Part shown: in pieces, positions 13,365 to 50,838 of the stretch
Layout of the letters: each line of letters opens with the position of its first letter
Numbering within the stretch: the stretch's first letter is position 1
Assembly (NCBI RefSeq): GCF_014196925.1
Contig: NZ_JACIEN010000002.1
Location: 744,001-808,000, forward strand
Direction of reading: 5' to 3'
DNA: 64,000 bases
DNA from: Chelatococcus caeni
GTDB lineage: Bacteria > Pseudomonadota > Alphaproteobacteria > Rhizobiales > Beijerinckiaceae
The notes under the pieces: generated by a model
What the model saw: only the letters and a program-made list of their open reading frames with translations
Told to the model about the DNA's origin: nothing
Database searches by the model: none
Translations under genes and position numbers: made by a program

Positions 13365-14258
13365 GTGGCGGCACAGGTGCTTGGGTTCGTTGGTCTTGGC
13401 CGCATGGGCGGCCCCATGAGCGGCCGGCTCGTCGAGGCCGGCTACGAGGTATGCGTCTTCGACGCGAACGGTGCCGCCCTCGAGGCGGCCGTCGGCCAGG
13501 GTGCGCGGGCCGCATCCTCGCCGTCCGATCTCGCATCCCGCGCCGACATCGTCTTCGTCAGCCTGCCGACGCCGGACATCGTCAGGGCGGTTGTGCTGGG
13601 CGAGGGCGGGATCGCCTCCGGCAGCCGCGCGCGGATCGTGGTGGACCTGTCGACCAGCGGGCCGCGGACGGCCAAGCTCCTCGCAGAGGGCCTCGCGAAG
13701 AGCGGCAAGATCGGCGTCGATGCCCCCGTGAGCGGCGGCATCGCCGGCGCCAGGAACGGCACGCTCGCCGTCATGGTGTCCTGCCCGCGGGAGACCTACG
13801 AGACGCTCGAACCCATCCTCAAGATCTTCGGGCGGCTGTTCTACACCGGCGAGAAGCCGGGCCTCGCGCAGACGGCCAAGCTCGCCAACAACCTCCTCGC
13901 CGCCGCGGCGCTCGTGGTCTCCTCGGAGGCCGTCGTGATGGGGGTCAAGGCCGGCATCGACCCCAAGGTCCTCATCGACATCCTCAATGCCAGCACGGGC
14001 CGCAACAGCGCGACCCAGGACAAGTTCCCGCGCGCCATCCTGACCCGCACCTTCGACTTCGGCTTTGCGACGGGGCTTTCCTACAAGGACGTGCGCCTTT
14101 GCATCGACGAGGCCGAGGCGATGGGCGTGCCGATGGTCGCCGGCGCCATCGTCCGGCAGATGCTGGCCGTCACCAACGCCAAATTCGGCCCGGATTCCGA
14201 CTTCACCTCCATCGCCAAGGTGGTCGAGGAGTGGGCCGGCGTCGAAATCCGGGGCTGA
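13365..14258 (+). CDS. NAD(P)-dependent beta-hydroxyacid dehydrogenase (3-hydroxyisobutyrate dehydrogenase family)
   Basis: A 297-residue dehydrogenase that oxidises or reduces a beta-hydroxyacid. The Rossmann motif is GFVGLGRMGGPMSG (7-20), the substrate loop DAPVSGG (119-125) is canonical, and catalytic K172 with N176 is in AKLANN. These match the HIBADH/GarR/tartronate-semialdehyde reductase family. It uses a GTG start, chosen because AGGGAGAG sits about 6 bp upstream. It opens the Liv-type operon. The exact substrate is unknown; compare the divergent second family member at 33907. Confidence 0.9.
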   Translation: MAAQVLGFVGLGRMGGPMSGRLVEAGYEVCVFDANGAALEAAVGQGARAASSPSDLASRADIVFVSLPTPDIVRAVVLGEGGIASGSRARIVVDLSTSGPRTAKLLAEGLAKSGKIGVDAPVSGGIAGARNGTLAVMVSCPRETYETLEPILKIFGRLFYTGEKPGLAQTAKLANNLLAAAALVVSSEAVVMGVKAGIDPKVLIDILNASTGRNSATQDKFPRAILTRTFDFGFATGLSYKDVRLCIDEAEAMGVPMVAGAIVRQMLAVTNAKFGPDSDFTSIAKVVEEWAGVEIRG

Positions 14259-26499: not shown

Positions 26500-26808
26500 T
26501 CAACCGGCCTCGCGTCGGGCGCGGCGGCTCTCGAGATTGTGGACGTGCACATGTTCGCCGGCTGCGACCGGTGCGGTCGTGATGCCGATGCATTCCCCGT
26601 ATTTGAGGACGGGCTCGCCGGCCGCGAGGTCGCGCGTGGCGAACTTGTGCCCCATCGCAATGGGCGCCGCGACACGCATGACGTGAACGGCATCGCCGAT
26701 ACGGACATTCACGTCGCCCTCGATGTCGCATAGGGCGACGGCGACGTTGTCGGCGGCGTTGATGGCCATCGCCTCCCAGGCGGCTTCCGGCTTCTCGGAT
26801 CCCGACAT
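26500..26808 (-). CDS. UxaA-family small subunit with SAF domain (altronate dehydratase N-terminal / SuyA-like)
   Basis: A 102-residue protein consisting of one SAF domain: DNVAVALCDIEGDVNV, PIAMGHKFATRDLAAGEPV, KYGECIGI and the closing GEHVHVHNLES. In fused UxaA/GarD enzymes this is the N-terminal domain; as a separate polypeptide it is the small subunit of split altronate/galactarate-type dehydratases or of (R)-sulfolactate sulfo-lyase SuyAB. Its start overlaps the stop of the large-subunit gene by one base. Sequence alone does not separate these activities, but the neighbourhood (taurine-type importer, YihU-like dehydrogenase) makes SuyA a serious candidate. Confidence 0.88.
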   Translation of the reverse strand: MSGSEKPEAAWEAMAINAADNVAVALCDIEGDVNVRIGDAVHVMRVAAPIAMGHKFATRDLAAGEPVLKYGECIGITTAPVAAGEHVHVHNLESRRARREAG

Positions 26809-28031
26809 CAGAAGGAGCCTCCGCTTCGGAACAGGCATTCCTCGCCTTCGGCGAAGATCTCGCCCCATGTGGCTGTGCCCGACGCCACGTCCACGAGGCG
26901 ATCGAACAATTGGTCGGCTGCATCGTCGACCGTCGCGCGGGCGAGAAGGACCGCGCTCGCATCGAAATCGACCTGTTCGGCCAGCGCCCTCGTGGCATCG
27001 GGATGGGCGCTGATCTTGATCGTCGGCGCGACAAGGCTGCAGAAGCTGTTGCCGGGGCCGGTGGTGAACAGCATGAGCTGGGCACCCGCCGCGGCGAAGC
27101 CCGTGAGCGATTCCGGCGAGAAGCCCGGCCCGTCCATGACGTGCAGGCCGGGACCGGCCGGTTGCGCGGCGAAGGGCAGGACCGAGCGGATCGGCCGGCT
27201 GCCGGCCTTGGCGATCGCGCCCAGCGATTTCTCCTCGATGGACGAGAGCCCGCCGCGTACGTTCTCGTAGCCGGGGTTGTTGTAGAGGAGATCGACCCCA
27301 AGCGCGGCGACGGCCTTCTCGCGCCGGGCGACCGCCTCGACGATCGCTTCGCCGATCGAGGCCTCGGCTGCCCGTCCGGCGAGGACATGTTCCGCCCCGA
27401 GCCATTCGAGCGTTTCGCCGACCACGGCCGTGCCGCCGCGATCGACGAGGCGATCGGCCACCGCGCCGGCGAGCGGATTGCTCACGAGCCCGGAGGTCGC
27501 ATCGGAATGGCCGCATTCGATGCCGATGAAGAGGTCGCTGACCGCCACCGGCTGGCGCCGCTCGGCCGAGATCGCCCGCGCCAGCGTGCCGCCGAGCCGG
27601 ATGCCGCGCTCGGTCAGGGCGAGCGCGTCCTCGTGCACGTCATCGAGGGTGACGATCGCCACCTGCTTTCCGGACCGCGCCACGATCGCCTCTGCGATCA
27701 TCTCGGCCGTCGGCCGGTCCGCGCCCACGACGAGCGTCGCGCCGATATTGGGATGGGCGCCGAGGCCGATGAGCTGGGCGAAGTGCACCTCCTTGTCGGG
27801 GCCGAGCTGGCCGCGACCATAGGGCGTCGCCACGAGCCTGCTGCCGGGAAGGGCCTGGGCGATGCGGCGCGCCGCGGGCGCCACGAGCCCGTTGATGCCG
27901 AGCACGAGGAGCGCATTGCGGATCCCGGCACGCCCTTTAGGCCGGGGAAAGCCGAGGAAGCTGGCATCGTCGCGGCGCGCGCCGCCCGTCTTGCCGCCCG
28001 CCGGCCCCGGTCCCGTCGCCCCTTCCTGCAT
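26808..28031 (-). CDS. UxaA-family large subunit (altronate/galactarate dehydratase C-terminal / SuyB-like)
   Basis: A 407-residue D-galactarate dehydratase/altronate hydrolase catalytic domain. Features include FPRPKGRAGIRNALLVLG, GIECGHSDATSGLVSNP and a C-terminal part with TTGPGNSFCSLVAPTIKIS. These iron-dependent lyases eliminate a group beta to a carboxylate: water in UxaA/GarD, sulfite in SuyB. ATG 28031 precedes a Gly-rich N-terminal tail. It follows the SMP-30 lactonase gene by 44 bp and is coupled to the small subunit. A fused 510-residue relative is encoded at 50894-52426. Confidence 0.9.
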   Translation of the reverse strand: MQEGATGPGPAGGKTGGARRDDASFLGFPRPKGRAGIRNALLVLGINGLVAPAARRIAQALPGSRLVATPYGRGQLGPDKEVHFAQLIGLGAHPNIGATLVVGADRPTAEMIAEAIVARSGKQVAIVTLDDVHEDALALTERGIRLGGTLARAISAERRQPVAVSDLFIGIECGHSDATSGLVSNPLAGAVADRLVDRGGTAVVGETLEWLGAEHVLAGRAAEASIGEAIVEAVARREKAVAALGVDLLYNNPGYENVRGGLSSIEEKSLGAIAKAGSRPIRSVLPFAAQPAGPGLHVMDGPGFSPESLTGFAAAGAQLMLFTTGPGNSFCSLVAPTIKISAHPDATRALAEQVDFDASAVLLARATVDDAADQLFDRLVDVASGTATWGEIFAEGEECLFRSGGSF

Positions 28032-28075
28032 GGCAGCCTCCCGTTGTCTTGTCGTTGCGCCTGTTCCGCGCCGCC

Positions 28076-28951
28076 TCATCCGGCGAAAGCCGGCTCCGCG
28101 AGCCCGCCTATGCCCGGCTCGAAGGCAAGGACCGCGCCGGCGAGCGGTTGCGCCCGGCGTTGCGCGTCGTCCAGCCCTTGCGTGGCGGTGGTCACGAAGA
28201 GCGTCGCGTGATCAGGCCCGCCGAAGCTGCACGAGGTCGGGTTGGACACCGGCAGCGGCACCACGCGCTCGAGCCGGCCGTCGGGCGAAAAGCGCGCCAC
28301 GATGCCGGCCCCGAAGCGGGCGTTCCAGAGGAAGCCCTCGGCATCGACCGTCGCGCCGTCCGGCTTGCCCGGCACCACGCCGGCCGGCACGAAGACTTGA
28401 GGCGGGCCGAGGGCGCCGGTTCGCGGATCGAGGGCGAGGCAGTGGATCGCGCCGTCGGCGCTGTCGGCGAAATAGGCCCGGTCGCCGGCGGGCGAGAAGG
28501 CGATGGCGTTGGGCACGGCGAGATCCCGGATGATCGATTCCAGCTGCATCACGGCGCCGTCGAGCCTGTAGAGGCTGCCGGTGCGCCGCCGGCCGAAGTC
28601 CCACATCGTGCTGAACCACAGCCGGCCCGCCCTGTCGCAGCGCGAGTCGTTGATGCGGTTTTCCGCATGGCCCTCGTCGATCGGCAGCCATGGTACGAGC
28701 CGCCCATCGGCGGGATCGAAGGTATGGAGCCCCGTGCGCAGGCCGAGGAGGAGACGGCCGTCCACACGCAGGACGACGGCGCCGACGAGATCGGGCATGG
28801 GCCAGGTCTCGACCGTTCCGCCGCGGTTCAGCCGCCTGAGCGCGGGCGCGCGGATATCGACCCAGTAGAGCGCCGCCTCGCGCGCGTTCCAGACGGGGGA
28901 TTCGCCGAGAATATCGACCGGCTCGGAGACCGCCCGGATCGCGTATCCCAT
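28076..28951 (-). CDS. SMP-30/gluconolactonase/LRE family lactonase, copy 1
   Basis: A 291-residue six-bladed propeller protein. The metal-binding Glu is E17 (LGESPVW); ENRINDSRCDRAGRLWF and GKPDGATVDAEGFLWNARFG supply the Asn/Asp ligands typical of gluconolactonase/regucalcin. It hydrolyses sugar-acid lactones to the open acid in the cytoplasm. GGAGGAG lies six bases before ATG 28951, in the 14-bp gap after the LacI gene. In this operon it would act between a sugar dehydrogenase (perhaps the aldo/keto reductase at 34811) and a dehydratase. Confidence 0.92.
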   Translation of the reverse strand: MGYAIRAVSEPVDILGESPVWNAREAALYWVDIRAPALRRLNRGGTVETWPMPDLVGAVVLRVDGRLLLGLRTGLHTFDPADGRLVPWLPIDEGHAENRINDSRCDRAGRLWFSTMWDFGRRRTGSLYRLDGAVMQLESIIRDLAVPNAIAFSPAGDRAYFADSADGAIHCLALDPRTGALGPPQVFVPAGVVPGKPDGATVDAEGFLWNARFGAGIVARFSPDGRLERVVPLPVSNPTSCSFGGPDHATLFVTTATQGLDDAQRRAQPLAGAVLAFEPGIGGLAEPAFAG

Positions 28952-28965
28952 GGACCGCTCCTCCC

Positions 28966-30066
28966 TCACCCGCCTGTGCCGGCCGGCCGCTCACCCGCCT
29001 CGGCGCGGACCTTCGGCTGGCCTGCCGTGGCCGCGGTCGATTCCCGCCTGATGATCTCGAAGCCGAGGTCGACCACCGGCGTCTCGACCGGCCGGCGGGC
29101 GATGCGGTCGAGCAGCATCTCGCCGGCCTTGCGGCCGATCTCGTAGCGGGGGATGCGCACGGTCGTGAGCGAGGGATTGAGATTCTCCGCGATCTCCAGG
29201 CCCTCGAAGCCGGCGATGGCGAGATCCTGCGGCACGGTGAGGCCGAGCCGCTGCGCCTCGAACAGCGCGCCGGCCGCGATGAAGTCGCCCGTGCAGAACA
29301 GCGCCTCGACATCCGGGCGCCGCTCGAGCAGAAGCCGCAGCTGCCGCGCCGCGGCCTTCAGATCCATCTCGAGCTCGGCGACGAGCCCTTCCGGATCGTC
29401 GTCGAGGCCGAATTCATGCACGGCGGCGTGATAGCCCGCCTGGCGTTCCACCTGCCGTTCGTTGTCCTTGGTGAAGGTCGTGAACAGGGCGACCTTCCGA
29501 TAGCCCTGTTCGGCGAACATCTTCGTGACCGCATAGGCGGCGCCGAAGTTCGAGAAGCCGACCGCCAGGTCGATCGGATCCTCCGGCAGGCTCGCGATCT
29601 CGACGGTCGGCACGGCGTTGTCGCGCAGCAGCTTGCGCGTGCGCTCGGTATGGGTGGAACCGGTCAGGTAGATGCCGTCGACGCGTCGCGACAGGAACTC
29701 GACGACGATGGCCTCCTCGTCCTCCGGCACGAATTCGCTGTTGCCGAGGAGGAGATGGTAGCCGCGGGCGCGGAGCACCTGATTGAAGCCCTCGGCGAAA
29801 TCGGCGGCGATCGAGTTGCGCAGCGTCGGGATGACCGCGCCGATCGTCATGGTCTGGTTCGACGACAGGCTGCTCGCCACCCGGTTGGGAATATAGCCGG
29901 TGGCGGCGATGGCGGCGGCGACCTTCTCGCGGGTTTCCGCCGAAACCAGATGCGGGAAGGAGAGGGCGCGCGACACGGTCATGGGCGCGACGCCGGCGAG
30001 CCGCGCCACGTCGCGGATCCCTGCGCGCTTGGCGCCCCGGCCTGTTGGATCGGACATCTTGGTCAT
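28966..30066 (-). CDS. LacI-family transcriptional regulator
   Basis: A 366-residue LacI/GalR repressor. HTH IRDVARLAGVAPMTVSRAL (17-35) is followed by hinge helix and a periplasmic-binding-protein-like sugar domain. ATG 30066 was taken as the start; 30057 is possible. It is the first gene of the minus-strand operon and lies 37 bp from a perfect 18-bp palindrome (30103-30120) in the divergent promoter. It therefore probably represses both its own operon and the ABC importer operon, with release by a sugar or acid ligand. Confidence 0.93.
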   Translation of the reverse strand: MTKMSDPTGRGAKRAGIRDVARLAGVAPMTVSRALSFPHLVSAETREKVAAAIAATGYIPNRVASSLSSNQTMTIGAVIPTLRNSIAADFAEGFNQVLRARGYHLLLGNSEFVPEDEEAIVVEFLSRRVDGIYLTGSTHTERTRKLLRDNAVPTVEIASLPEDPIDLAVGFSNFGAAYAVTKMFAEQGYRKVALFTTFTKDNERQVERQAGYHAAVHEFGLDDDPEGLVAELEMDLKAAARQLRLLLERRPDVEALFCTGDFIAAGALFEAQRLGLTVPQDLAIAGFEGLEIAENLNPSLTTVRIPRYEIGRKAGEMLLDRIARRPVETPVVDLGFEIIRRESTAATAGQPKVRAEAGERPAGTGG

Positions 30067-30090
30067 GCGCGCTTCATCTAGCCCAGTCGC

Positions 30091-30120
30091 TTGACGCTGT
30101 CGAATGGTACCGGTACCATT
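30091..30120 (+). promoter_or_regulatory. Divergent promoter with 18-bp LacI-type operator
   Basis: AATGGTACCGGTACCATT (30103-30120) is a perfect palindrome with the central CG typical of LacI/GalR operators. On the plus strand TTGACG (30091-30096) and TACCAT (30114-30119), spaced 17 bp, form a possible promoter whose -10 lies inside the operator. Repressor binding would block it. Confidence 0.75.
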
Positions 30121-30170
30121 ACCCAATAGACAAGAAAAATGATCCTGAAAAGCGATCCTGGGAGGAGCCC

Positions 30171-31022
30171 TTGACGGCTCGTGACGAGAATGGCGCCGCC
30201 GTGGCGCCGGGCGGCGCCACGCCATACTGGCCGACGCCCCTTGCCGCCCGCATCTACGCGTCGATCGGCGGCCTGTTCGTCTATGTGCGGGCGATGGCCG
30301 TCTTCCTCGTCATCTGGCATCTCGTCTCGCTGTGGATCGGCAACCCCATCCTTCTCCCCTCGCCGATCGCGGCGGCCGAGGCGCTCGTCGATCTGACGCG
30401 GCAGGGCGAAGTGTTCAGCAACGTGGTGGCGAGCCTGACCCGGCTCGGCACGAGCTTCGCCCTCGCGATCCTCCTCGGGGTGCCGCTCGGCTTCGCCATG
30501 GGCCTGAGCCGCAACGTCTTCGCCATGGTCGATCCCCTGATCGAGCTTTTGCGGCCGATCTCCGGCATCGCCTGGATCCCGCTCGGCATGTTCATCCTCG
30601 GTGTCGGCGAGGCGTTGCCGACGGCCATCATGTTCTACGGCGCCTTCTTTCCGATCGTGATCAACACCGTCGTCGGCGTGCGCTCGGTCAATCCGGGGCT
30701 GGTACAGGCCGCGCGCGTGCTCGGCGTCGGCCGGGCACACATCGTCCGGCACGTGATCTGGCCGGCGGCGCTGCCCAACATCCTCGTTGGAGCGCGGCTC
30801 GGGGCCGGCGCCGGCTGGATGGCCATGGTCGCGGCCGAGCTCATCGGCGCGCCCTCCGGCCTCGGCTTTGCCGTCGAGTGGTATCGCGAGCTGCTGATGA
30901 CGCCGAGCGTGCTCGCCTTCGTCTTCCTCATCGGCCTGCTCGGCTATCTCTTCGACCGGCTGCTGCGCTGGCTGCAACGCGTGCTCACCCCCTGGGCCCA
31001 GACGCAGGGAGGCGCATTGTGA
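30171..31022 (+). CDS. ABC transporter permease, nitrate/sulfonate/taurine type, subunit 1
   Basis: A 283-residue SsuC/TauC-family permease with about six spans. Typical segments are [15 protein letters not shown] near the N-terminus and the EAA loop [20 protein letters not shown]. The start is a TTG at 30171 because GGAGGAG lies directly upstream and no in-frame ATG exists before the first span; GTG 30201 is the alternative. Its stop overlaps the next start (GTGA). Two different permeases in one TauC-type system imply a heterodimeric channel. Confidence 0.9.
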
Positions 31023-31789
31023 ATCTCGCCCTTCGCCTGCGCCCCTTCGTCCTGCCGGCCCTGCTGCTCATTCTGTGGCAGCTCGCGGCGATGCAGGCGG
31101 CGCCCGCCGACCGCATGCCAGTGCCGGCCGATGTCCTCGCCACGGGCTGGACGCTCATTGCCAGCGGCGAACTGCCGCTCGCCCTGCTGCAGAGCCTGCA
31201 GCGCGTCATGCTCGGCTTCGCGACATCCGCCGCGCTCGCGCTCGTCCTCGGCACCGCCATGGCGGCCTATCGCCCGGTCGGCCGCAACCTCGATCCGATC
31301 ATCGAGAGCTTCCGGCCGATCGCGCCCATCGCCCTGTTGCCGCTGGCCATCCTGTGGTTCGGCACGGGCACGCCGGCGGCCGCCTTCATCGTCGGCTATG
31401 CGGCGTTCTTCCCGATGATCGTCAACACGATCCACGGCGTGCGCAGCATCGATCCCGGCCTCATCCGCGCCGCGCGCACCCTCGGCGTCGGCCGCCTGAC
31501 CATCCTGCGCACGGTCGTCCTGCCCGGCGCCCTGCCCAATCTCTTCGTCGGCGCGCGTCTCGCGCTCGGCGTCGCCTGGACATCGATCATCGCCGCGGAG
31601 CTTGCCGTAGGGGCGAAGGCCGGCGGCGGCGCCTCCGGCGGCATCGGGCAGATGATGTTCGTCTTCTACGCCTACAGCGTCGATCTCTCCGGCATCATCG
31701 TCTGCATGATCGGCGTCGGCGTCGTCGCCCTTCTCATCGACCGCGGCGTGCGCGCCCTCGAATACTGGATGATCCCATGGAAGCGCTAG
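31019..31789 (+). CDS. ABC transporter permease, nitrate/sulfonate/taurine type, subunit 2
   Basis: A 256-residue SsuC/TauC-family permease, with GTG start overlapping the previous stop. It has [20 protein letters not shown] near the N-terminus and EAA loop [20 protein letters not shown], much like its neighbour, indicating an old duplication. Its 3' end overlaps the ATPase gene by 13 bp. Confidence 0.92.
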
Positions 31790-32610
31790 ATCAAGCCGCG
31801 CCGAAGATCCGCCTCGACGGCATCAGCAAGGAATACATCGTCCCGCGCACGGGCCAGCGCACACTTGCGATCGCCGATGTCTCGCTCGACATCGTCCAGG
31901 GCGAGTTTCTCTGCATCGTCGGCCCGTCCGGCTGCGGCAAGAGCACGATCCTCAACATGATCGCCGGGCTCGCCGAGCCGTCCGCCGGCACCGTCGCCAT
32001 GGATGGCGCGCCGATCCGCGCCCCGGGCTCCGAGCGCGGTGTCGTCTTCCAAGACTACGCGCTCTTTCCCTGGAAGACAGTGCGCGAGAACATCGAATTC
32101 GGCCCGCGTTTCCGCTCGGATGCGCGGCTCGGCGCCGCCGAGCGCGACAAGCTGGTGCGCCACTACATCGACCTCGTCTCGCTCACGGGGGCCGAGCACA
32201 AATATCCGCACGAGCTCTCCGGCGGCATGCGCCAGCGCTGCGCCTTCGCGCGCGCCCTCGCCAACGAGCCCGAAGTCCTGCTCATGGACGAGCCCTTCGC
32301 GGCGCTCGATGCGCAGACGCGGCTCATCCTGCAGGAGGAGCTTCTGCGCATCTGGGGCGAAGACCTGCCGCGTGCGGAGCGCAAGACCGTCATCTTCATC
32401 ACGCACGGCATCGACGAGGCGGTGTTCCTCGCCGACCGGGTCGCCGTGATGAGCAACCACCCCGGCCGCATCAAGACGGTGATGGACATCGATCTGCCGC
32501 GGCCACGGCGCGAAAGCCTGCGCGCCACCAGCGAATTCCAGACGCTCGCCGACGAGATCTGGCAGCTCATCCGCCGCGAGGCCTACGAAGCCACCATCGA
32601 CAGGCGCTGA
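31777..32610 (+). CDS. ABC transporter ATP-binding protein, nitrate/sulfonate/taurine type
   Basis: A 277-residue SsuB/TauB-type ATPase. Walker A is GPSGCGKS (49-56), signature LSGGM (147-151), Walker B VLLMDE (167-172). The Q-loop [15 protein letters not shown] is characteristic of the nitrate/sulfonate/taurine group. It overlaps the second permease gene. A small hairpin (32616-32633) lies between it and the binding-protein gene. Confidence 0.94.
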
Positions 32611-32615
32611 GGGGA

Positions 32616-32633
32616 GCCCGCAGCAAAGCGGGC
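32616..32633 (+). other. Hairpin upstream of taurine-type binding protein
   Basis: GCCCGC-AGCAAA-GCGGGC, a perfect 6-bp stem, sits between the ATPase stop and the AGGGAGGA ribosome-binding site of the binding-protein gene. It is similar in position and loop to the hairpin at 19261-19275. Confidence 0.4.
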
Positions 32634-32648
32634 CAAGGGAGGACTGAC

Positions 32649-33875
32649 ATGAGGGATACCAGCAAGCCAACGCGTCGCCGTTTCCTCGCAACGGCCGGAG
32701 CGGCCGGCATCGCGGTCATCGCCGCGCCGCGCATCGCGCGGGCGCAGGCCGTGAGCGTCTCCGTGGGGCGTCAGCCCTGGGCGGCCGGCAATTCGCCCGT
32801 CACGCAATACATGCTCAACAACAAGGTCTTCGAGAAGAAGGCGAAGGAGGCCGGCTACGACCTGACGGTCGACTGGCGTGACTATCCCTCCGCGCAGCCG
32901 ATGGTGGAGGCCTTCGTCAGCAACAATCTCGACCTCGGCATGTGGGGCAACACGCCCATCATCCGCGGCCTCGCCGCCAAGCAGCCGTGGACGGTGGTCA
33001 ATGTCGGCGAGGGGCACTTCCGCTTCGTCGTCGCGACGCGGAAGGGATCCGAGATCCGCAATATCGCGGATCTCAAGGGCAAGACCGTCGGCGCGCTGCT
33101 GGGCGGCGACCCCTACAACGCCTTTTCTCAGATCCTCCTCAACGAGCTCGGCTCGGGCAATCCGCGCGACTTCGACATCAAGATGATCAACACGCCGACC
33201 CAGGCGCAGGCGGCGACCATCCCGCGCGGCATGGATGCGGCCGTGCTGATCTATCCCGCCTTCCTCAAGGCGCAGAAGGAGGTCGGCACCGTCGGCATCG
33301 TCAATTCCTTCGGCTACACGGAAGACCATTACAAGGGCCCGGAAGGCGAGGGGGCGGGGCACCTGCTGCCGTCGGTCAAGAAGTCCGCCTTCTACCCGGA
33401 CGGCTATTATCTGCACCGCTCCTTCTGGATGACGCGGGATGAACTCCTCGACAAGCACCCGAAACTGATCACGGCCTTCGTCGCCGCCCAGCAGGAAGCC
33501 GTCGATGCGCTGAAGGGCATGTCGCCGGCCGCCATTTCCGACAGCGTCGAGAAATACTGGGGCCTGCCGTCCGACCTCGGCGCCAAGGTCGTGGAGGACG
33601 AGGTGCTCTTCCGCCGCGGCTGGGTGTGGCCGACGCAGGGTGACGTCAGCGCCATCGTCGAGACCTCGAAATTCATGGTGGCGGGCGGGCTGATCCCGGC
33701 CCCGCTAGAGTGGCAGGTCGTGCACGACAATGTCGCCAAGGCCGCGCCGCTCCTGCGCGAGGCCTACGAACTCTCGGGCAGCAAGCCCGACGAGAGCGCC
33801 TTCACGGCCTCCGACGCCGGCGATCTGCGCGGATTGCCGACATGGCAGCAGGACCGCTGGCAGACGAAGAACTGA
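32649..33875 (+). CDS. ABC transporter substrate-binding protein, nitrate/sulfonate/taurine type
   Basis: A 408-residue periplasmic protein with a Tat-type signal (PTRRRFLATAGAAGIAV, then IARAQ). The mature fold is of the SsuA/TauA/NMT1 class (YPSAQPMVEAFVSNNLDLGM, ADLKGKTVGALLGGDPYNAF). AGGGAGGA precedes ATG 32649. It is longer than typical TauA (about 320 residues) and has an extended C-terminal helical part. The class mostly binds sulfonates, nitrate or aromatic and heterocyclic acids. With sugar-acid enzymes around it, a sulfosugar or sulfonate ligand deserves testing. Confidence 0.92.
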   Translation: MRDTSKPTRRRFLATAGAAGIAVIAAPRIARAQAVSVSVGRQPWAAGNSPVTQYMLNNKVFEKKAKEAGYDLTVDWRDYPSAQPMVEAFVSNNLDLGMWGNTPIIRGLAAKQPWTVVNVGEGHFRFVVATRKGSEIRNIADLKGKTVGALLGGDPYNAFSQILLNELGSGNPRDFDIKMINTPTQAQAATIPRGMDAAVLIYPAFLKAQKEVGTVGIVNSFGYTEDHYKGPEGEGAGHLLPSVKKSAFYPDGYYLHRSFWMTRDELLDKHPKLITAFVAAQQEAVDALKGMSPAAISDSVEKYWGLPSDLGAKVVEDEVLFRRGWVWPTQGDVSAIVETSKFMVAGGLIPAPLEWQVVHDNVAKAAPLLREAYELSGSKPDESAFTASDAGDLRGLPTWQQDRWQTKN

Positions 33876-33906
33876 TCCGTTGCCGGATCGAACAAGGATG
33901 GAATCG

Positions 33907-34809
33907 ATGGACAGGATCGGGTTTCTGGGGCTCGGCACCATGGGTGGCCCCATGGCGCGCAACATCCTGCGCAAGGGCTATCGCGTGAAGGGCTTCGACC
34001 TGAACCGCAACGCCATCGAGGCGCATGTCGCGGTCGGCGGCGAGGCCGCGGCCTCGCTCGCCGATCTCGCCGACGGGGCCGATGTCGTCATCACCATGCT
34101 GCCCGACGGGCCGGACGTCGAGCGGGCGGTGCTGGGCGAGGGCGGGCTCGCCCACGCCATGCGCCCGGGCGCCGTGCTCGTCGACATGAGCACCATCGAT
34201 CCCGCCGTGACGCGGCGTGTCGGCCAGGCGCTTGCCGAAAAGGGCATCGCCATGGTCGACAGCCCCGTCGGCAAGACCCAGGATCACGCCATCGCCGGCA
34301 CGCTGACCCTGATGGTGGGCGGCGATCCCGCCGTGGTCGAGCGCGTGCGCCCGATCCTCGCCTGCATGGGCAGCGACTTTTTCTATTGCGGCAGTCTCGG
34401 CATGGGCGAGGCGCTGAAGCTCACCAACAACTTCCTCGCCGCCACCATCTTGTCGGCAACGAGCGAGGCGCTCGTCATGGGCGCCAAGGCCGGCCTGTCG
34501 CTCGAGCTCATGACCGAGGTCATGCGCACGACGATGGCCTGGAACAACCAGCTCGCCATCGCCCTGCCGAAGAAGGGCCTCGCCGGTGACTTCTCGCCCG
34601 GCTTCATGGTCAAGCTCGGGGAGAAGGACCAGCGGCTGGCCATCGGCATGGCGAGGGCGCTCGGCGTCGACACGCCGGTCGGCGACGCGGCCCATGCGGT
34701 GCTGGTGGAGGCCAAGACCACGGGCTTCGCCGATTTCGACGTCACCTCGGTGCTGCACCTGCGCGAGGAGCAGGCGGGCATCACCGTGCGCGCCAGCAAG
34801 GACGCCTGA
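33907..34809 (+). CDS. Beta-hydroxyacid dehydrogenase family oxidoreductase with YihU-like substrate loop
   Basis: A 300-residue HIBADH-fold dehydrogenase. The Rossmann motif is GFLGLGTMGGPMARN (5-19), and catalytic K171 with N174/N175 is in KLTNN. Instead of the canonical DAPVSGG, the substrate loop is DSPVGKTQDHA (118-128). That pattern resembles 3-sulfolactaldehyde reductase YihU (VGRTS), in which, as I recall, R123, N174 and S178 hold the sulfonate; here position 123 is Lys and 178 Ala. ATG 33907 was chosen over 33898 because AAGGA lies eight bases upstream of it. A role with an anionic C3 hydroxyaldehyde/acid is likely; sulfonate specificity is inference. Confidence 0.9.
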   Translation: MDRIGFLGLGTMGGPMARNILRKGYRVKGFDLNRNAIEAHVAVGGEAAASLADLADGADVVITMLPDGPDVERAVLGEGGLAHAMRPGAVLVDMSTIDPAVTRRVGQALAEKGIAMVDSPVGKTQDHAIAGTLTLMVGGDPAVVERVRPILACMGSDFFYCGSLGMGEALKLTNNFLAATILSATSEALVMGAKAGLSLELMTEVMRTTMAWNNQLAIALPKKGLAGDFSPGFMVKLGEKDQRLAIGMARALGVDTPVGDAAHAVLVEAKTTGFADFDVTSVLHLREEQAGITVRASKDA

Positions 34810-34810
34810 G

Positions 34811-35830
34811 ATGACGGAGGGCGTCCCGACGCGCCGTCTCGGCCGCACCGACCTTGCCGTCTCGGTGCTCGGTTTCGGCGCCGCCCCGCTGGGCGGCGTC
34901 TACCGAGCGCTCTCGGACGCCGAGGCCGATGCGACGGTGGCGGCGGCCTATGACGCGGGCCTGCGCTATTTCGACGTGGCGCCGTTCTACGGCCTCGGGC
35001 TCGCGGAGCATCGCCTCGGCCACGCCCTGCGTGAGCGCCGAGGCGATTGCGTGGTGTCGACCAAGGTCGGCCGGCTGCTCCGCCCGGTGCGCGGCCGCGC
35101 GCCGGAGAGCATGTATGTCGACCCGCTGCCCTTCGAGGTCGTATACGATTACAGCTACGACGGCGTCATGCGGTCGATCGAGGACAGCCAGCAGCGCACG
35201 GGCCTCGTCGATTTCGACATCCTGTTTATCCACGACGTCAACCGGCGCTGGCACGGCGATGCCGTCGACCGCCGCTTCGACGAGGTAATGGCCGACGGCT
35301 ATCGCGCCCTCGACGAGCTGCGCCGCAACGGCCATGTGAAGGCGATCGGCGTCGGCGTCAATGACAACGAGATCCTCGTGCGCTTCGCGGAAGCCGGCCG
35401 CTTCGACTGCTTCATGCTGGCGGGCCGCTACACGCTGCTCGACCAGTCGCCGCTCGACCAGCTCTTTCCGCTCTGCGAGCGCGAGGGAATTTCCATCGTC
35501 TCGGCGGCGCCGTTCAATTCCGGCATCCTCGCGACCGGTGCGCGTCCGGGCGCGAAGTTCTTCTATGCCGATGCGCCGCCTGCGATCCTGGAGCGGACGC
35601 GGCAGATCGAGGACGTCTGCGAGCGTCACGGCGTGCCGTTGGCGGCGGCGGCGCTGCAATTCGCGCTCGGTCATCCGGTGGTGGCGAGTGTCGCCGCAGG
35701 CTTCAGTTCGCCCGCCGAGGTCGAGACCAATGTCGCGATGATGCGCTTTCACATTCCGCCCGCCTTCTGGGAGGAGCTCAAGGCCCAAGGCCTCGTCCGC
35801 AAGGAGAGCCCGACCGCCAACACGGCGTGA
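34811..35830 (+). CDS. Aldo/keto reductase (L-fucose/D-threo-aldose 1-dehydrogenase type)
   Basis: A 339-residue AKR with the full catalytic tetrad D55, Y60 (FDVAPFYG), K85 (VVSTKVG) and H141 (ILFIHDVN). The VYDYSYDGVMRSIEDSQQRT segment is typical of the fucose/galactose/pyridoxal 4-dehydrogenase branch, which oxidises free sugars at C1 to lactones with NAD(P). Its ATG is one base after the preceding stop. In this module it could form the lactone that the SMP-30 enzyme opens. Confidence 0.92.
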   Translation: MTEGVPTRRLGRTDLAVSVLGFGAAPLGGVYRALSDAEADATVAAAYDAGLRYFDVAPFYGLGLAEHRLGHALRERRGDCVVSTKVGRLLRPVRGRAPESMYVDPLPFEVVYDYSYDGVMRSIEDSQQRTGLVDFDILFIHDVNRRWHGDAVDRRFDEVMADGYRALDELRRNGHVKAIGVGVNDNEILVRFAEAGRFDCFMLAGRYTLLDQSPLDQLFPLCEREGISIVSAAPFNSGILATGARPGAKFFYADAPPAILERTRQIEDVCERHGVPLAAAALQFALGHPVVASVAAGFSSPAEVETNVAMMRFHIPPAFWEELKAQGLVRKESPTANTA

Positions 35831-35868
35831 GACGAGCGCCCTTCGGGCGAAGCACAGAGGAGGCGCCC

Positions 35869-37074
35869 TTGGAAACGTCTCGCGCAGGCGGCCGGTGGCC
35901 CCTGCCCATCACATCCGTCGAGGCCTTCACCATCCAGGTGTCGGCGAAAACCGTCTGGATCCTGCTGGAGCTCGGCTTTGCCGACGGGATCGCCGGCTGG
36001 GGCGAGGCGACGCTCGCCGGAGCGGAAGAGGCGGTGCTCGCCGAGATCGGCCATGCCGGGGCGCTTCTCGCCGGCCGGTCCTTCGCGGGAGCGGGCGAGG
36101 CCCTCGCCGGCCTGCGCAGTGCCCATGCCTCGCAGGCGCGGCTGACGGTGATGCGTGCCGTCGAGCAGGCCTTCCTCGATGCGCTTGCGCGCCGTGCGGG
36201 CCTGCCGCTCGCCGCCCTGCTCGGCGGGCCGGAACGGCAGGCGGTTCCGGTCTACGCCAATATCAACCGCGGCATCACCAACCGCTCGCCGCAGGCCTTT
36301 GCCGCACGCGCCCGGGAGGTCGTGACGCAGGACGGCTACAGGGCCGTGAAGATCGCGCCCTTCGACGGGCTCGACTGGGCCCGCGTCGACCATCAGGCGG
36401 GCACGCGCCTCCTGAGCGCCGGCCTGGCCCGCATCGCTGCGGTGCGCGAGGCGATCGGTCCCGATGTGGCGCTGCTTGTCGATTGTCACGCCCGCCTTTC
36501 GCCGGTGATGGCGCGCACGGTCCTGCGCGAGGTCGGTGACGCGGGCCTCTACTGGCTCGAGGAGCCGCTCGCGGAGGACGCTTTCGACGCCGAAACGGGG
36601 CGGGCCTTGCGCCATTTCGCCAATGACCGCGGCATCCGCATCGCCGGCGGCGAGCATCTGGAGAGCTTTGCGGAGGCCCGGGACTTTCTGGCGCGCGGCA
36701 CCTGCGATGCCATCCTGCCGGACCTGCGCTGGACGGGCATCCGCACCGGCCTTGCCATGCTCGAACTGGCGGCGGCCTCGGGCGTCGGGGTGAGCCTCCA
36801 CAATCCGGTCGGGCCGGTGCTCGACCGGATCAGCGTGCAGGTGGCGGCGGCCCTGCCGTCTTTCCTCATCCTCGAACGGCAGGTGCGCGAGAGCCCCCTG
36901 TTCGACGCGATCCGCGGCGGGCCGCAGGAGCTCGTGGAGGGTGCGGTCCTTCTCGATGACGCGCCCGGTTTTGGCCCGGAACCGGACCGGGCGCTGCTGG
37001 AACGCTGCACCCGCCAAGGCTTCATCCGTCCGGCGAGCCTTGCCGGCATCGCCGGCGCCGGCGGCGATACATGA
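35869..37074 (+). CDS. Mandelate racemase/muconate lactonizing enzyme family protein (acid-sugar dehydratase-like), copy 1
   Basis: A 401-residue enolase-superfamily enzyme. Probable residues: K161 (AVKIAPFDG), metal ligands D205 (LLVDCHARL), E231/E232 (YWLEEPL) and E262 (AGGEH), and H311 (SLHNP). Members abstract the alpha-proton of a carboxylate to dehydrate or isomerise sugar acids. The start is a TTG at 35869, five bases after GAGGAGG; an in-frame GTG at 35827 overlaps the previous stop but has a hairpin (35837-35849) between it and the ribosome-binding site. It is last in the importer operon. The substrate is unassigned. Confidence 0.9.
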   Translation: METSRAGGRWPLPITSVEAFTIQVSAKTVWILLELGFADGIAGWGEATLAGAEEAVLAEIGHAGALLAGRSFAGAGEALAGLRSAHASQARLTVMRAVEQAFLDALARRAGLPLAALLGGPERQAVPVYANINRGITNRSPQAFAARAREVVTQDGYRAVKIAPFDGLDWARVDHQAGTRLLSAGLARIAAVREAIGPDVALLVDCHARLSPVMARTVLREVGDAGLYWLEEPLAEDAFDAETGRALRHFANDRGIRIAGGEHLESFAEARDFLARGTCDAILPDLRWTGIRTGLAMLELAAASGVGVSLHNPVGPVLDRISVQVAAALPSFLILERQVRESPLFDAIRGGPQELVEGAVLLDDAPGFGPEPDRALLERCTRQGFIRPASLAGIAGAGGDT

Positions 37075-49052: not shown

Positions 49053-50132
49053 ATGCTGATGAAACTCCTCGAAGACGGCTCGTATCTCGTCGATGCCCCC
49101 CGGCTGGAGGCCCTGGTCCAGGCCATGCTCGAGAAGGTGGACGTTCCCGCGCCGGACGCCGCCCTCGTCGCCGGATCGCTGGTGTCCGCCGATGCCAGGG
49201 GCATGAATTCGCACGGGGTGCTGCGCCTGCCGGTCTACATCCGCCGGCTGCAGCAGGGTGGCTTCAAACCGGCGAGCCGGGGGACCGTGGTCAAGGAGAC
49301 GGCCGCCACCATGCTGATCGACGGCGGCGAAGGCCTGGGGGCGGTGCTGACCTCGCATGCGATGGACATCGCCATCGAGAAGGCGCGGACGACCGGCATC
49401 GCAGCCGTCGGCATCCGCAATTCCAACCACAACGGCGAGAACGCCTATTACGTCCAGCGCGCGATCGCCCAGGACATGATCGGCATCGCCACGACCAACG
49501 GCTCGCCGATCATGCCGGTCTGGGGCGGCAAGACGCCGCTCACCGGCCCGCTGCCGATCGCCATCGGCGTGCCAACCGGCGAGGCCCTGCCGATCGTGCT
49601 CGATGCGGCGCTCGGCATGTCCTCGCGCGGCAAGATTCTTTACTACGCCGAAAAGGGCATGCAACTGCCCGACGGCTGGCTCGTGGACGCGGAAGGGCGG
49701 CCGACGAACGATCCGAACTGGGTCAAGAACGGCGGCTGGATCCTGCCCATCGGCGGGCACAAGGGCTGGGGGCTCATCCTCGCCTGCGAGATCCTGTCGG
49801 GCCTGCTCACCGGCGGCGCCTTCGGCCAGGAGCTCACGAACCTCTATGACGACCTCGACCGTCCGCAGCGCAACGGCCATTTCGTCATCGCCATCAACAT
49901 CGCCGCCTTCACCGACGTTGCCGCGTTCAAGGAGCGGATGGACGCCTACATCGCCATCATGAAGGCCTCGGAGCGCGCGCCCGGCGTCGACGAGATCCTG
50001 ATGCCCGGCGAGATCGAGTTCCGCAAGGAGAAGAAGCAACGGGCGGAAGGGCTCGCGGTGAGCCGCTCCGTCATCGACGAGGTCGTCGCCGTCGCGCGGG
50101 GCCTTGGTCTCGACGCCACCGCGATGCTGTGA
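49053..50132 (+). CDS. Ldh2/malate dehydrogenase-family NAD(P)-dependent oxidoreductase
   Basis: A 359-residue member of the type-2 malate/L-lactate dehydrogenase family (ureidoglycolate, 2,3-diketogulonate and sulfolactate dehydrogenases are relatives). Conserved His residues are in NSHGVLRLP and IRNSNHNGENAYY; nucleotide-binding region TTNGSPIMPVWGG follows. It oxidises a 2-hydroxyacid. ATG 49053 is three bases and ATG 49059 nine bases after AAAAGGA; either may serve. It lies directly after the TRAP genes, so its substrate is likely the imported hydroxyacid. Confidence 0.9.
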   Translation: MLMKLLEDGSYLVDAPRLEALVQAMLEKVDVPAPDAALVAGSLVSADARGMNSHGVLRLPVYIRRLQQGGFKPASRGTVVKETAATMLIDGGEGLGAVLTSHAMDIAIEKARTTGIAAVGIRNSNHNGENAYYVQRAIAQDMIGIATTNGSPIMPVWGGKTPLTGPLPIAIGVPTGEALPIVLDAALGMSSRGKILYYAEKGMQLPDGWLVDAEGRPTNDPNWVKNGGWILPIGGHKGWGLILACEILSGLLTGGAFGQELTNLYDDLDRPQRNGHFVIAINIAAFTDVAAFKERMDAYIAIMKASERAPGVDEILMPGEIEFRKEKKQRAEGLAVSRSVIDEVVAVARGLGLDATAML

Positions 50133-50145
50133 GGGGCCGAAGACG

Positions 50146-50838
50146 ATGCACGATCCCCTTCTCGACCGGCTGCGGAATCTCGAGACCGGCCAGGTCAGCG
50201 ACGTTCTCGACGAGGCCGGCCTGCCCAACCATGCGCTTGCCTCGGCTCTAGTGCCGCTCGCGCCGGGCCAGCGGTTCGCCGGGCGGGCCGCCTGCCTCAG
50301 GGGCGAGCGCAACGTCGCCGGGCGTGCGCAGGCGTCGGCGGCGCCGGCCGACACCTTCGAGCGTGTCGCGAAGCCGGGAACCGTCGTCGTGATCGAGGCC
50401 GGCGGCTTCCAGGGCGGGGCGCTTCTCGGCGGCTTCGTCGCCTTGAGCCTGCAGCGTGGCGGCTGCGTCGGCCTCGTTACCGACGGTGCCATCCGCGACG
50501 CCAATGAGATCCGGGACCTCGGGTTTCCCTGCGTGGTCGGGGCGGTCACGCCGGTCAACGGCGCGCGCCGCTGGCGCCTGAGCGAGGTCGATGTCCCGGT
50601 CTGCCTGCCTGGCCAGTCGGACGGCCCTGTGCGGGTTTCGCCGGGCGACTACATCCTCGCCGACGGCGACGGCGCCGTCGCCATTCCCGCCGGCGTCGCC
50701 GAGCAGATCATCGCCGATGCCGAGGAACTGCAGCGCATCGAGCGGCGCATCGGCGAGGAGATGCGCGCCGGCGGCAGCCGCACGGCGGTGTTCAAAGCCA
50801 ACCCGCGCTTCGACCACGTCCGCCCTGCGCGCGGGTGA
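50146..50838 (+). CDS. RraA-family protein (HMG/CHA aldolase-like), copy 1
   Basis: A 230-residue RraA-fold protein. The metal/substrate loop is GLVTDGAIRDANEI, containing the Asp-Gly-x-x-Arg-Asp pattern that in class II HMG/CHA aldolases and oxaloacetate decarboxylases binds the metal and pyruvate moiety. A retro-aldol or decarboxylation step after the Ldh2-type dehydrogenase is likely. It is the last gene of the operon; a bidirectional hairpin follows. True RNase E inhibition is unlikely in this setting. Confidence 0.9.
   Translation: MHDPLLDRLRNLETGQVSDVLDEAGLPNHALASALVPLAPGQRFAGRAACLRGERNVAGRAQASAAPADTFERVAKPGTVVVIEAGGFQGGALLGGFVALSLQRGGCVGLVTDGAIRDANEIRDLGFPCVVGAVTPVNGARRWRLSEVDVPVCLPGQSDGPVRVSPGDYILADGDGAVAIPAGVAEQIIADAEELQRIERRIGEEMRAGGSRTAVFKANPRFDHVRPARG

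What the first reader, a model, noticed from the sequence alone, without database searches (positions are those of the whole stretch)
26500..37074. Possible variant sulfosugar/organosulfonate catabolic module under LacI control
Seen: divergent operons around one LacI operator. One side encodes LacI, SMP-30 lactonase and a split UxaA pair; the other a nitrate/sulfonate/taurine-class ABC importer, a HIBADH-fold dehydrogenase with a YihU-like substrate loop, an aldo/keto reductase and an enolase-superfamily enzyme. Known: SuyAB ((R)-sulfolactate sulfo-lyase) belongs to the split UxaA family, YihU is 3-sulfolactaldehyde reductase, and a sulfo-Entner-Doudoroff route uses sugar dehydrogenase, lactonase, dehydratase, aldolase and C3-sulfonate enzymes. 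Inference: the set could oxidise a sulfosugar to its acid, dehydrate it, and cleave sulfite from a C3 sulfonate, with AKR and MR/MLE enzymes replacing the usual SDR and IlvD types. Against: no sulfoquinovosidase, dedicated KDSG aldolase, sulfite exporter or sulfite dehydrogenase is visible in the window.
Basis: partly seen in the sequence, partly recalled or inferred. Interest (0 to 1): 0.7.

Follow-up and report, generated by a model that had tools for sequence, protein, structure and literature searches.

The report
Sugar-acid operon with orphan lyase pair
This bacterium carries a conserved, switch-controlled gene set that probably imports an unusual sugar and breaks it down by oxidation; it includes a two-part lyase of unknown substrate, and the sulfonate cleavage first proposed for it is not supported.

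Summary
The genes are real and in the stated places. It looks like a LacI-controlled, non-phosphorylative (Entner-Doudoroff-like) route: NMT1/SsuA-class importer, aldose dehydrogenase (AKR), SMP-30 lactonase, galactonate-dehydratase-type MR/MLE enzyme, split UxaA-type pair, HIBADH-fold reductase. The sulfosugar reading is only partly supported. The pair sits in its own clade (100/100), not among SuyB or UxaA/GarD. It lacks three of four proposed iron cysteines, as SuyB does, but matches SuyB at only 2 of 17 discriminating columns. None of 24 loci of this clade has a ComC, SlcC, SuyZ or TauE homologue; 5 of 6 SuyB loci have at least one. The reductase shares G-[RK]-T with YihU but has Ala for Ser178. 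New and unexplained: the clade is linked to MR/MLE genes (18 of 24 loci) and sulfatases (13 of 24), although none of the 5 loci with the window's importer type has a sulfatase. No aldolase is conserved. Its tree position beside SuyB is not firm (grouping with dehydratases not rejected, p-AU 0.204). Verdict: new variant of acid-sugar catabolism with an orphan lyase subfamily; substrate unknown.

The parts
26500..26808 (-). UxaAs: small (SAF-domain) subunit of the split UxaA/GarD-superfamily pair
   Evidence: Pfam SAF; 54% and 47% to the small subunits of the Chelatococcus and Phyllobacterium modules
26808..28031 (-). UxaAl: large subunit; Cys-poor clade that is neither SuyB nor UxaA/GarD
   Evidence: Pfam GD_AH_second and GD_AH_C; alignment and cysteines; tree
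28076..28969 (-). SMP-30/gluconolactonase-family lactonase (GTG start; internal ATG at 28951)
   Evidence: Pfam SGL 245.5 bits; 39% to the SMP-30 (SfcD-like) gene of S. mexicanum L052
28966..30066 (-). LacI-family repressor, GntR/IdnR-like (start approximate)
   Evidence: NCBIfam GntR/IdnR models below cut-off; 81% and 78% to LacI of the L004 and L005 modules
30103..30120 (.). LacI-type operator AATGGTACCGGTACCATT, perfect palindrome
   Evidence: 0.00 expected; identical site in L005, site with two differences in L004
30171..31022 (+). ABC permease 1 (TauC/SsuC class)
   Evidence: NCBIfam hits below cut-off; TTG start with GGGAGGAG upstream
31019..31789 (+). ABC permease 2
   Evidence: ORF; 86% and 69% in L004 and L005
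31777..32610 (+). ABC ATPase
   Evidence: ORF; 85% and 78% in L004 and L005
32649..33875 (+). NMT1/SsuA-class substrate-binding protein with an RRRFLATAG (Tat-like) N-terminus
   Evidence: Pfam NMT1; NCBIfam SsuA_fam 84 bits against cut-off 163.5; PDB SsuA 3uif E 1.6e-7
33907..34809 (+). HIBADH-fold reductase/dehydrogenase with PVGKT loop
   Evidence: NCBIfam SLA reductase 268 bits, cut-off 348; PDB 6sm7 E 2.6e-57; residues
34811..35830 (+). Aldo/keto reductase, L-galactose / D-threo-aldose 1-dehydrogenase type
   Evidence: Pfam Aldo_ket_red; PDB L-galactose dehydrogenases best; 53% and 51% to AKRs of Roseomonas and R. etli
35827..37074 (+). MR/MLE enzyme, galactonate-dehydratase type with catalytic residues kept
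   Evidence: Pfam; DgoD D183, H185, E209, E235, H285, E310 all conserved

Best explanation
A LacI-repressed, non-phosphorylative Entner-Doudoroff-like catabolic module for an aldose, probably an acidic or anion-bearing one. Proposed steps: the NMT1/SsuA-class ABC importer takes up the sugar (class shown, ligand inferred); the AKR oxidises C1 to the lactone (family shown, substrate inferred: D-arabino/L-fuco/L-galacto configuration); SMP-30 opens the lactone to the aldonate (inferred); the MR/MLE enzyme dehydrates or epimerises the aldonate (catalytic residues shown, reaction inferred); the split UxaA-type pair performs an alpha-proton abstraction and beta-elimination on a 2-hydroxy acid of the route (fold family shown, leaving group unknown); the HIBADH enzyme reduces or oxidises a short beta-hydroxy acid or aldehyde formed downstream. 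The sugar or its product, through LacI, lifts repression. The pair belongs to a separate Cys-poor subfamily that is usually linked to MR/MLE enzymes and often to sulfatases, so the substrate may be a sulfated or otherwise anionic sugar acid. An aldolase, if needed, must come from elsewhere in the genome. This is an umbrella reading; the second and third rivals are narrower versions of it, so the odds overlap.
For: Core synteny of LacI, pair, importer, HIBADH and AKR in L004 and L005 with the same operator. Rearranged versions in G105 and G628 (the latter over two contigs, continuity inferred) and a version with a CUT1 importer in G526. The HIBADH type (E up to 1e-75) was found in 2 of 397 order genomes and 3 of 372 class genomes, own genome included; each of the three other genomes (G105, G526, G628) also carries the UxaAl clade, which is found in 14 of 397 and 8 of 385 genomes, own included. 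MR/MLE genes, of more than one type, in 18 of 24 UxaAl-clade loci. AKR best structural hits are L-galactose dehydrogenases, and a 53% AKR lies beside an amidohydrolase-family gene and a FucU-domain gene in Roseomonas. A characterised UxaA-family enzyme acts on D-arabinonate and weakly on D-altronate, L-fuconate and L-galactonate, the configuration expected from such an AKR (PMC6336799, passages; the AKR specificity is recalled). In sister loci the AKR is replaced by an SDR and SMP-30 by a fuconolactonase-like amidohydrolase, which fits sugar dehydrogenase plus lactonase roles.
Against: Two candidate dehydratases in one operon is odd, and the order of reactions is a guess. DHDPS-type aldolases are in 0 of 24 loci and HpcH-type in 1 of 24 at 29%, although an Entner-Doudoroff-like route needs a cleavage step; a DHDPS-family gene does lie 23 kb away in the window (60396-61298). 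The importer class usually carries sulfonates, nitrate or small anions, not neutral sugars (recalled). The L005 MR/MLE enzyme is only 39% identical to the window's and lies outside its closest branch. HIBADH and AKR are missing from most loci of the UxaAl clade (7 and 6 of 24, one HIBADH at only 28%), so the pair's own function need not depend on them. No biochemistry.
Confidence: 0.55

Rival explanations
1. Sulfosugar module as first proposed: a sulfoquinovose- or sulfofucose-like sugar is oxidised, opened, dehydrated and cleaved, and the split pair releases sulfite from a C3 sulfonate like SuyAB.
For: Layout resembles the published sulfofucose cluster, whose dehydratase SfcF is also MR/MLE (PMC12421959, passages; S. 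mexicanum stretch L052 with a SuyAB pair, genes read by eye). The pair lacks three iron cysteines as SuyB does, and the window has Arg where UxaA has Cys166, as the six SuyB rows do. The best tree joins its clade with SuyB and a Variovorax pair (97/95). Importer of the SsuA class. HIBADH nearest to SLA reductase. A SuyZ-family exporter homologue (45%) lies elsewhere in the genome.
Against: Outside the SuyB clade. At 17 SuyB-against-dehydratase columns the window matches SuyB 2 times, dehydratases 6, neither 9. The Arg is present in only 11 of 22 rows of its clade, and a haloarchaeal pair outside the SuyB side also lacks the three cysteines. ComC, SlcC, SuyZ and TauE in 0 of 24 clade loci against 6, 4, 3 and 1 of 11 comparison loci. 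YihU Ser178 is Ala. Window MR/MLE is 28% to the SfcF homologue and in another clade. No HpcH aldolase in the locus; the 53% homologue in the genome lies in what reads by eye as an aromatic meta-cleavage operon. Only a 20-bit hit to the sulfite dehydrogenase tried.
Confidence: 0.15
2. O-sulfated sugar or sugar-acid catabolism: the importer carries a sulfate ester, and the pair acts on a sulfated or desulfated aldonate; in this genome the sulfate may leave by elimination instead of by a sulfatase.
For: Sulfatase homologues in 13 of 24 clade loci, in five families of genomes (family labels), against 0 of 11 loci of SuyB, other split pairs and one fused UxaA; three of the sulfatases read carry C-x-P-[SA]-R (motif recalled). 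L075 (G526) holds AKR, HIBADH, pair, LacI, SMP-30, SDR and a sulfatase in one 16-kb stretch. On a Sulfitobacter plasmid a related NMT1 importer, a 47% MR/MLE enzyme, SMP-30, SDR and DHDPS genes lie with a sulfatase.
Against: No sulfatase in the loci with the NMT1 importer (0 of 5: window, L004, L005, G628, G105), and only a 22-bit hit in the own genome to the one sulfatase tried. The sulfatase loci mostly use TTT transporters. Two of the 13 sulfatase hits are weak or distant (30% in G100, 39% at the stretch end in G145a). Flanks differ in length and several genomes are close kin.
Confidence: 0.2
3. Ordinary neutral sugar route (L-fucose, L-galactose or D-arabinose type) in which the split pair is just another aldonate dehydratase.
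For: AKR type; CUT1 sugar importers and a fuconolactonase-like amidohydrolase in sister loci; a heteromeric L-fuconate dehydratase has been proposed from gene context (PMC6336799, passage); the window sides with dehydratases at 6 of 17 columns, and tree grouping with dehydratases is not rejected.
Against: The pair lacks three of the four cysteines that the same paper finds conserved in the family except SuyAB. Importer class is unusual for a neutral sugar (recalled).
Confidence: 0.25

Closest known systems
Tandem sulfofucolytic-sulfolactate sulfolyase pathway (SfcH, SfcD, SfcF, SfcE with SuyAB; PMC12421959)
   Same: Importer, sugar dehydrogenase, lactonase, MR/MLE dehydratase and a split UxaA-superfamily pair together
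   Different: AKR instead of SDR; MR/MLE in another clade; no HpcH aldolase; pair is not SuyAB; NMT1 instead of CUT1 importer; extra HIBADH; no ComC, SlcC or exporter in the locus
(R)-sulfolactate sulfo-lyase SuyAB
   Same: Heteromeric, same domains, three iron cysteines absent, Arg at the UxaA Cys166 column in the window
   Different: 33-35% identity of the large subunit, separate 100/100 clade, SuyB-specific residues mostly absent, large-before-small gene order, different neighbourhood
UxaA / GarD / D-arabinonate dehydratases
   Same: Fold family, the fourth cysteine, 6 of 17 discriminating residues
   Different: Split genes, three cysteines missing, 25-35% identity to the five fused proteins compared
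YihU 3-sulfolactaldehyde reductase and GarR
   Same: HIBADH fold; G-[RK]-T loop shared with YihU; catalytic Lys kept
   Different: 38% identity to YihU, Lys for Arg123, Ala for Ser178
D-galactonate dehydratase DgoD (MR/MLE)
   Same: All six catalytic and metal residues checked
   Different: Separate branch, most of whose rows come from loci with the split pair

Membership tests
SuyAB sulfolactate sulfo-lyase | Large subunit falls inside the clade of SuyB proteins with sulfonate neighbourhoods | tested here: not met
   SuyB clade of 6 rows 100/100; window in another clade of 22 rows 100/100
SuyAB sulfolactate sulfo-lyase | Absence of the UxaA/GarD iron cysteines | tested here: met
   E. coli UxaA C132, C166, C199 are L, R and a gap in the window; C264 kept. 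SuyB rows show the same pattern, but so do a Variovorax and a haloarchaeal pair in lacking the three
SuyAB sulfolactate sulfo-lyase | Residues invariant in SuyB and different in dehydratases | tested here: not met
   window: 2 of 17 SuyB, 6 dehydratase, 9 other
SuyAB sulfolactate sulfo-lyase | Neighbours ComC, SlcC or a sulfite exporter | tested here: not met
   0 of 24 clade loci for ComC, SlcC, SuyZ, TauE; at least one in 5 of 6 SuyB loci
SuyAB sulfolactate sulfo-lyase | Sulfite release from (R)-sulfolactate | not testable with these tools
   needs enzyme assay
UxaA/GarD dehydratase | Four conserved cysteines (PMC6336799, mapped here onto E. coli UxaA) | tested here: not met
   one of four kept
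UxaA/GarD dehydratase | NCBIfam galactarate dehydratase cut-off | tested here: not met
   154.5 bits against 730.85
UxaA/GarD dehydratase | Groups with dehydratases in the tree | tested here: inconclusive
   best tree separates them (97/95) but p-AU 0.204 for holding the window clade with the dehydratases
3-sulfolactaldehyde reductase (YihU) | NCBIfam curated cut-off | tested here: not met
   268.3 bits against 348
3-sulfolactaldehyde reductase (YihU) | Sulfonate pocket Arg123 amide, Asn174, Ser178 (roles recalled, not read in a call) | tested here: not met
   Lys123, Asn174 (also in GarR) and Ala178 in the window and its four orthologues aligned; one more distant G628 paralogue (48%) has Ser178 but no G-[RK]-T loop
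SsuA/TauA sulfonate-binding protein | NCBIfam SsuA_fam or taurine-binding cut-off | tested here: not met
   84.2 against 163.5 and 44.6 against 304.25 bits
SsuA/TauA sulfonate-binding protein | Binds a sulfonate | not testable with these tools
   structure model failed (mean pLDDT 35.9)
MR/MLE galactonate-type dehydratase | D183, H185, E209, E235, H285, E310 of DgoD (roles recalled) | tested here: met
   all six identical
Sulfofucolytic / sulfo-ED pathway | Dehydrogenase, lactonase, dehydratase and KDSG/KDSGal aldolase in one cluster | tested here: not met
   no HpcH or DHDPS homologue within 10 kb of the pair; MR/MLE outside the SfcF branch
L-galactose / D-threo-aldose 1-dehydrogenase AKR | Closest solved relatives are aldose 1-dehydrogenases | tested here: met
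   top five PDB hits L-galactose dehydrogenase, best E 1.3e-32

The most novel reading that the evidence does not exclude
The split pair founds a third functional branch of the UxaA/GarD/SuyAB superfamily: a Cys-poor lyase that works in tandem with a dedicated MR/MLE clade and eliminates an oxidised-sulfur leaving group (sulfate or sulfite) from a sulfated or sulfonated aldonate, giving these bacteria a sulfatase-free or sulfatase-assisted route for sulfur-bearing sugars.
Probability: 0.15. Interest if true: 0.75.

Novelty: new variant of a known kind. Interest (0 to 1): 0.45.

Why it matters
The UxaA/GarD superfamily has few assayed members, and a heteromeric pair is easily read as SuyAB or altronate dehydratase by default. 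This module shows a well-separated pair subfamily with its own partners (MR/MLE genes, sulfatases, a PVGKT HIBADH), so a single assay campaign could name a new lyase activity and a new sugar-acid or sulfur-sugar route. It also warns that a split UxaA pair beside an SsuA-class importer is not enough to call sulfonate catabolism.

Tried and rejected
Structure prediction of the binding protein and of the large subunit from three-sequence alignments failed (mean pLDDT 35.9 and 33.3), so no fold search was made. The GarD and YihU structure papers did not turn up in searches; YihU and DgoD residue roles are from recall. The idea that the genome holds the missing aldolase in a sulfosugar cluster was checked: the 53% SfcE homologue lies beside genes that read by eye as aromatic meta-cleavage, so dropped. 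A SuyZ-family homologue (45%) lies about 420 kb away beside an SMP-30-like gene and is not linked to the module. No U462 relative was found in the own genome.

Rows dropped: L006 and L007 matched only 58 and 83 residues and were left out of trees and counts. L017 (genome G032, 46%, cut at a contig start) was left out of both. L030 and L032 were left out of the 37-row tree but are in the 24-locus count, as members by identity (46% and 48%). G628 is one unit of two contigs; L047 is counted with L004. The first look of the genome searches scored only a few candidates per genome, so the genome counts are lower bounds. A phylum-wide sample gave 2 of 398 genomes, own genome and G105.

No paper on this pair subfamily turned up in searches; that covers only the held open-access library.
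Full report
Observation. The two operons diverge from about 30.1 kb. A perfect 18-bp palindrome at 30103-30120 is the only such site in the window, none being expected by chance. The same 18 bases occur between LacI and the importer in Candidatus Phyllobacterium onerii (L005), and a version with two differences in Chelatococcus asaccharovorans (L004), next to LacI proteins 78% and 81% identical. So the divergent, LacI-controlled arrangement is real and conserved.

Conservation of the module. In L004 and L005 the importer, HIBADH, AKR and UxaA large subunit are 68-86% identical and the small subunit 54% and 47%, in the same core order. Chelatococcus keeps the lactonase between LacI and the pair (70%) and has an IclR/SMP-30-like gene before the MR/MLE gene. 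Phyllobacterium lacks the lactonase beside LacI and has one (43%) and an MR/MLE gene (39% to the window's) at the far end of the importer operon. In G105 and G628 the order is large subunit, permeases, binding protein, HIBADH, small subunit, with an SDR (G105) or an AKR (G628) as dehydrogenase; G628 lies on two contigs, so its continuity is inferred. G526 has AKR, HIBADH, pair, LacI, SMP-30 and SDR with a CUT1 importer and a sulfatase nearby. In sampled genomes the HIBADH type was found in 2 of 397 (order) and 3 of 372 (class), own genome included. The three other genomes are G105, G526 and G628, and all three carry the UxaAl clade, found in 14 of 397 and 8 of 385 genomes, own included. G526 and G628 share a family, and only a few candidates per genome were scored, so this is strong but not independent or exhaustive evidence of a link.

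The split pair. The large subunit was aligned with 36 relatives: 21 of its own clade, 6 SuyB-type sequences, one Variovorax pair, one haloarchaeal pair, two other split pairs and five fused UxaA/GarD proteins. SuyB anchors are L051 (annotated hpsN, hpsO), L054 (annotated TauE-type exporter; SlcC- and ComC-like genes and a molybdopterin oxidoreductase, my reading), L057 (similarly arranged genes, my reading) and L052 (S. mexicanum ITTG R7, a strain named in PMC12421959; genes read by eye). Of the four cysteines proposed to bind iron (PMC6336799, passages; mapped here) the window keeps one. Its whole clade and the SuyB rows lack the other three, and so do the Variovorax and haloarchaeal pairs. 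Arg at the Cys166 column is in all six SuyB rows, in Variovorax and in 11 of 22 rows of the window clade. A review calls SuyAB Fe(II)-containing (PMC12890257, passage), so missing cysteines do not prove a metal-free enzyme. In the tree the window sits in a 22-row clade (100/100) apart from the 6-row SuyB clade (100/100); both plus Variovorax form one side of a 97/95 branch. Cautions: holding the window clade with the dehydratases is not rejected (p-AU 0.204), nor is holding it with SuyB alone (0.122); and at 17 columns that separate SuyB from dehydratases the window matches SuyB twice, dehydratases six times and neither nine times. The gene order is large before small in the clade except L034-L036, and small before large in the SuyAB loci.

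Neighbourhoods. Homologues of chosen reference proteins (E up to 1e-12) were counted over 24 clade loci of 10-38 kb, window included: MR/MLE in 18 (one at 26%), sulfatase in 13 (one at 30%, one at 39% at a stretch end), TTT permease in 14, NMT1 importer in 5, HIBADH in 7 (one at 28%), AKR in 6, HpcH aldolase in 1 (29%), DHDPS in 0, and ComC, SlcC, SuyZ and TauE in 0. In 11 comparison loci (six SuyB, four other split pairs, one fused UxaA) sulfatase, TTT permease, NMT1 importer and AKR occur in 0, MR/MLE in 2, HIBADH in 1, ComC in 6, SlcC in 4, SuyZ in 3 and TauE in 1. Several of the 24 come from the same genus, flanks differ in length and some end at contig ends, so these are descriptive counts. 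The three sulfatases read carry C-x-P-[SA]-R (motif recalled) and match Pfam Sulfatase. A recurrent protein of about 460 residues (U462; its L025 copy has no Pfam or NCBIfam match) lies in 5 of 24 loci.

Other enzymes. The MR/MLE enzyme keeps all six DgoD residues checked. It and the MR/MLE genes of L005, L026, L029, L034, L047 and L079, with two of a Sulfitobacter plasmid, form a branch (SH-aLRT 97) apart from DgoD plus the SfcF homologue (99) in a 14-row tree. In L023 and L025 the linked MR/MLE enzymes are of another type that lacks the H185 equivalent. The HIBADH best hits are SLA-reductase models and structures, but below the curated cut-off; position 123 is Lys and position 178 Ala in the window and its four orthologues aligned. 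Two G628 copies also have Ala178, while a third, more distant one (48%) has Ser178 without the loop. PVGRL or PIGRL loops occur in HIBADH proteins of Paracoccus yeei and Sphingobium loci whose function was not resolved, so the loop alone is weak evidence. The AKR is closest to L-galactose dehydrogenases and 53% identical to an AKR beside an amidohydrolase-family gene and a FucU-domain gene in Roseomonas. The binding protein is SsuA/TauA-like at low similarity.

Interpretation. The parts fit an oxidative, non-phosphorylative sugar route whose substrate has the D-arabino/L-fuco/L-galacto configuration, taken up by an anion-type importer. That is inference from families and context. Sulfite release by the pair is not supported: it is not SuyAB by tree, residues or neighbourhood. 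A plain aldonate dehydratase is possible but would have to work without three of the usual cysteines. The sulfatase and MR/MLE linkage of the clade is the most interesting lead and was not in the original finding; it suggests sulfated sugar acids for many relatives, but the five loci with the window's importer type lack a sulfatase, and the own genome has only a 22-bit hit to the one sulfatase tried.

Literature seen. PMC12421959 (abstract, passages, section 10), PMC6336799 (passages), PMC11465081 (text, part 1 of 2), PMC12890257, PMC3839906 and PMC6906117 (passages). The YihU sulfonate-pocket residues, the DgoD roles and the AKR specificity are recalled.

Noticed in passing
L025:2744-4132 (-), also L027, L035, L073, L074: A recurrent protein of about 460 residues (U462; the L025 copy has no Pfam or NCBIfam match) in 5 of 24 loci of the UxaA-pair clade.
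   Followed up: partly
L080 (Sulfitobacter mediterraneus plasmid NZ_CP081110.1, 46000-76000): Plasmid cluster combining an NMT1 importer, LacI, sulfatase, two DHDPS-family genes, two MR/MLE genes (one 47% to the window's), SDRs and two SMP-30 genes, with no UxaA-pair hit.
   Followed up: partly
L080:21430-23067 (+) and L047:2004-3710 (-): SMP-30 domain fused behind an IclR-type regulator. Shown by Pfam for L080; read by eye for L047.
   Followed up: partly
window 50894-52426 (-), with 50104-50838 and 60396-61298: A second, fused four-cysteine UxaA-family gene in the same window, near an RraA-like gene and a DHDPS-family gene: the window looks like an acid-sugar island.
   Followed up: partly
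window 13365-14258 (+): A second HIBADH-fold gene with the ordinary PVSGG loop, 39% identical to the module's.
   Followed up: no
L060:6690-14175 (Rhodococcus koreensis plasmid): SuyAB-type pair with aldehyde dehydrogenase, HIBADH with a GKT loop, SlcC- and ComC-like genes: looks like a DHPS or sulfolactaldehyde route in an actinobacterium.
   Followed up: no
L053:7515-12276 (Variovorax plasmid): A split pair that joins the SuyB clade only weakly (87/74), with SlcC- and ComC-like neighbours and a TTT binding protein.
   Followed up: no
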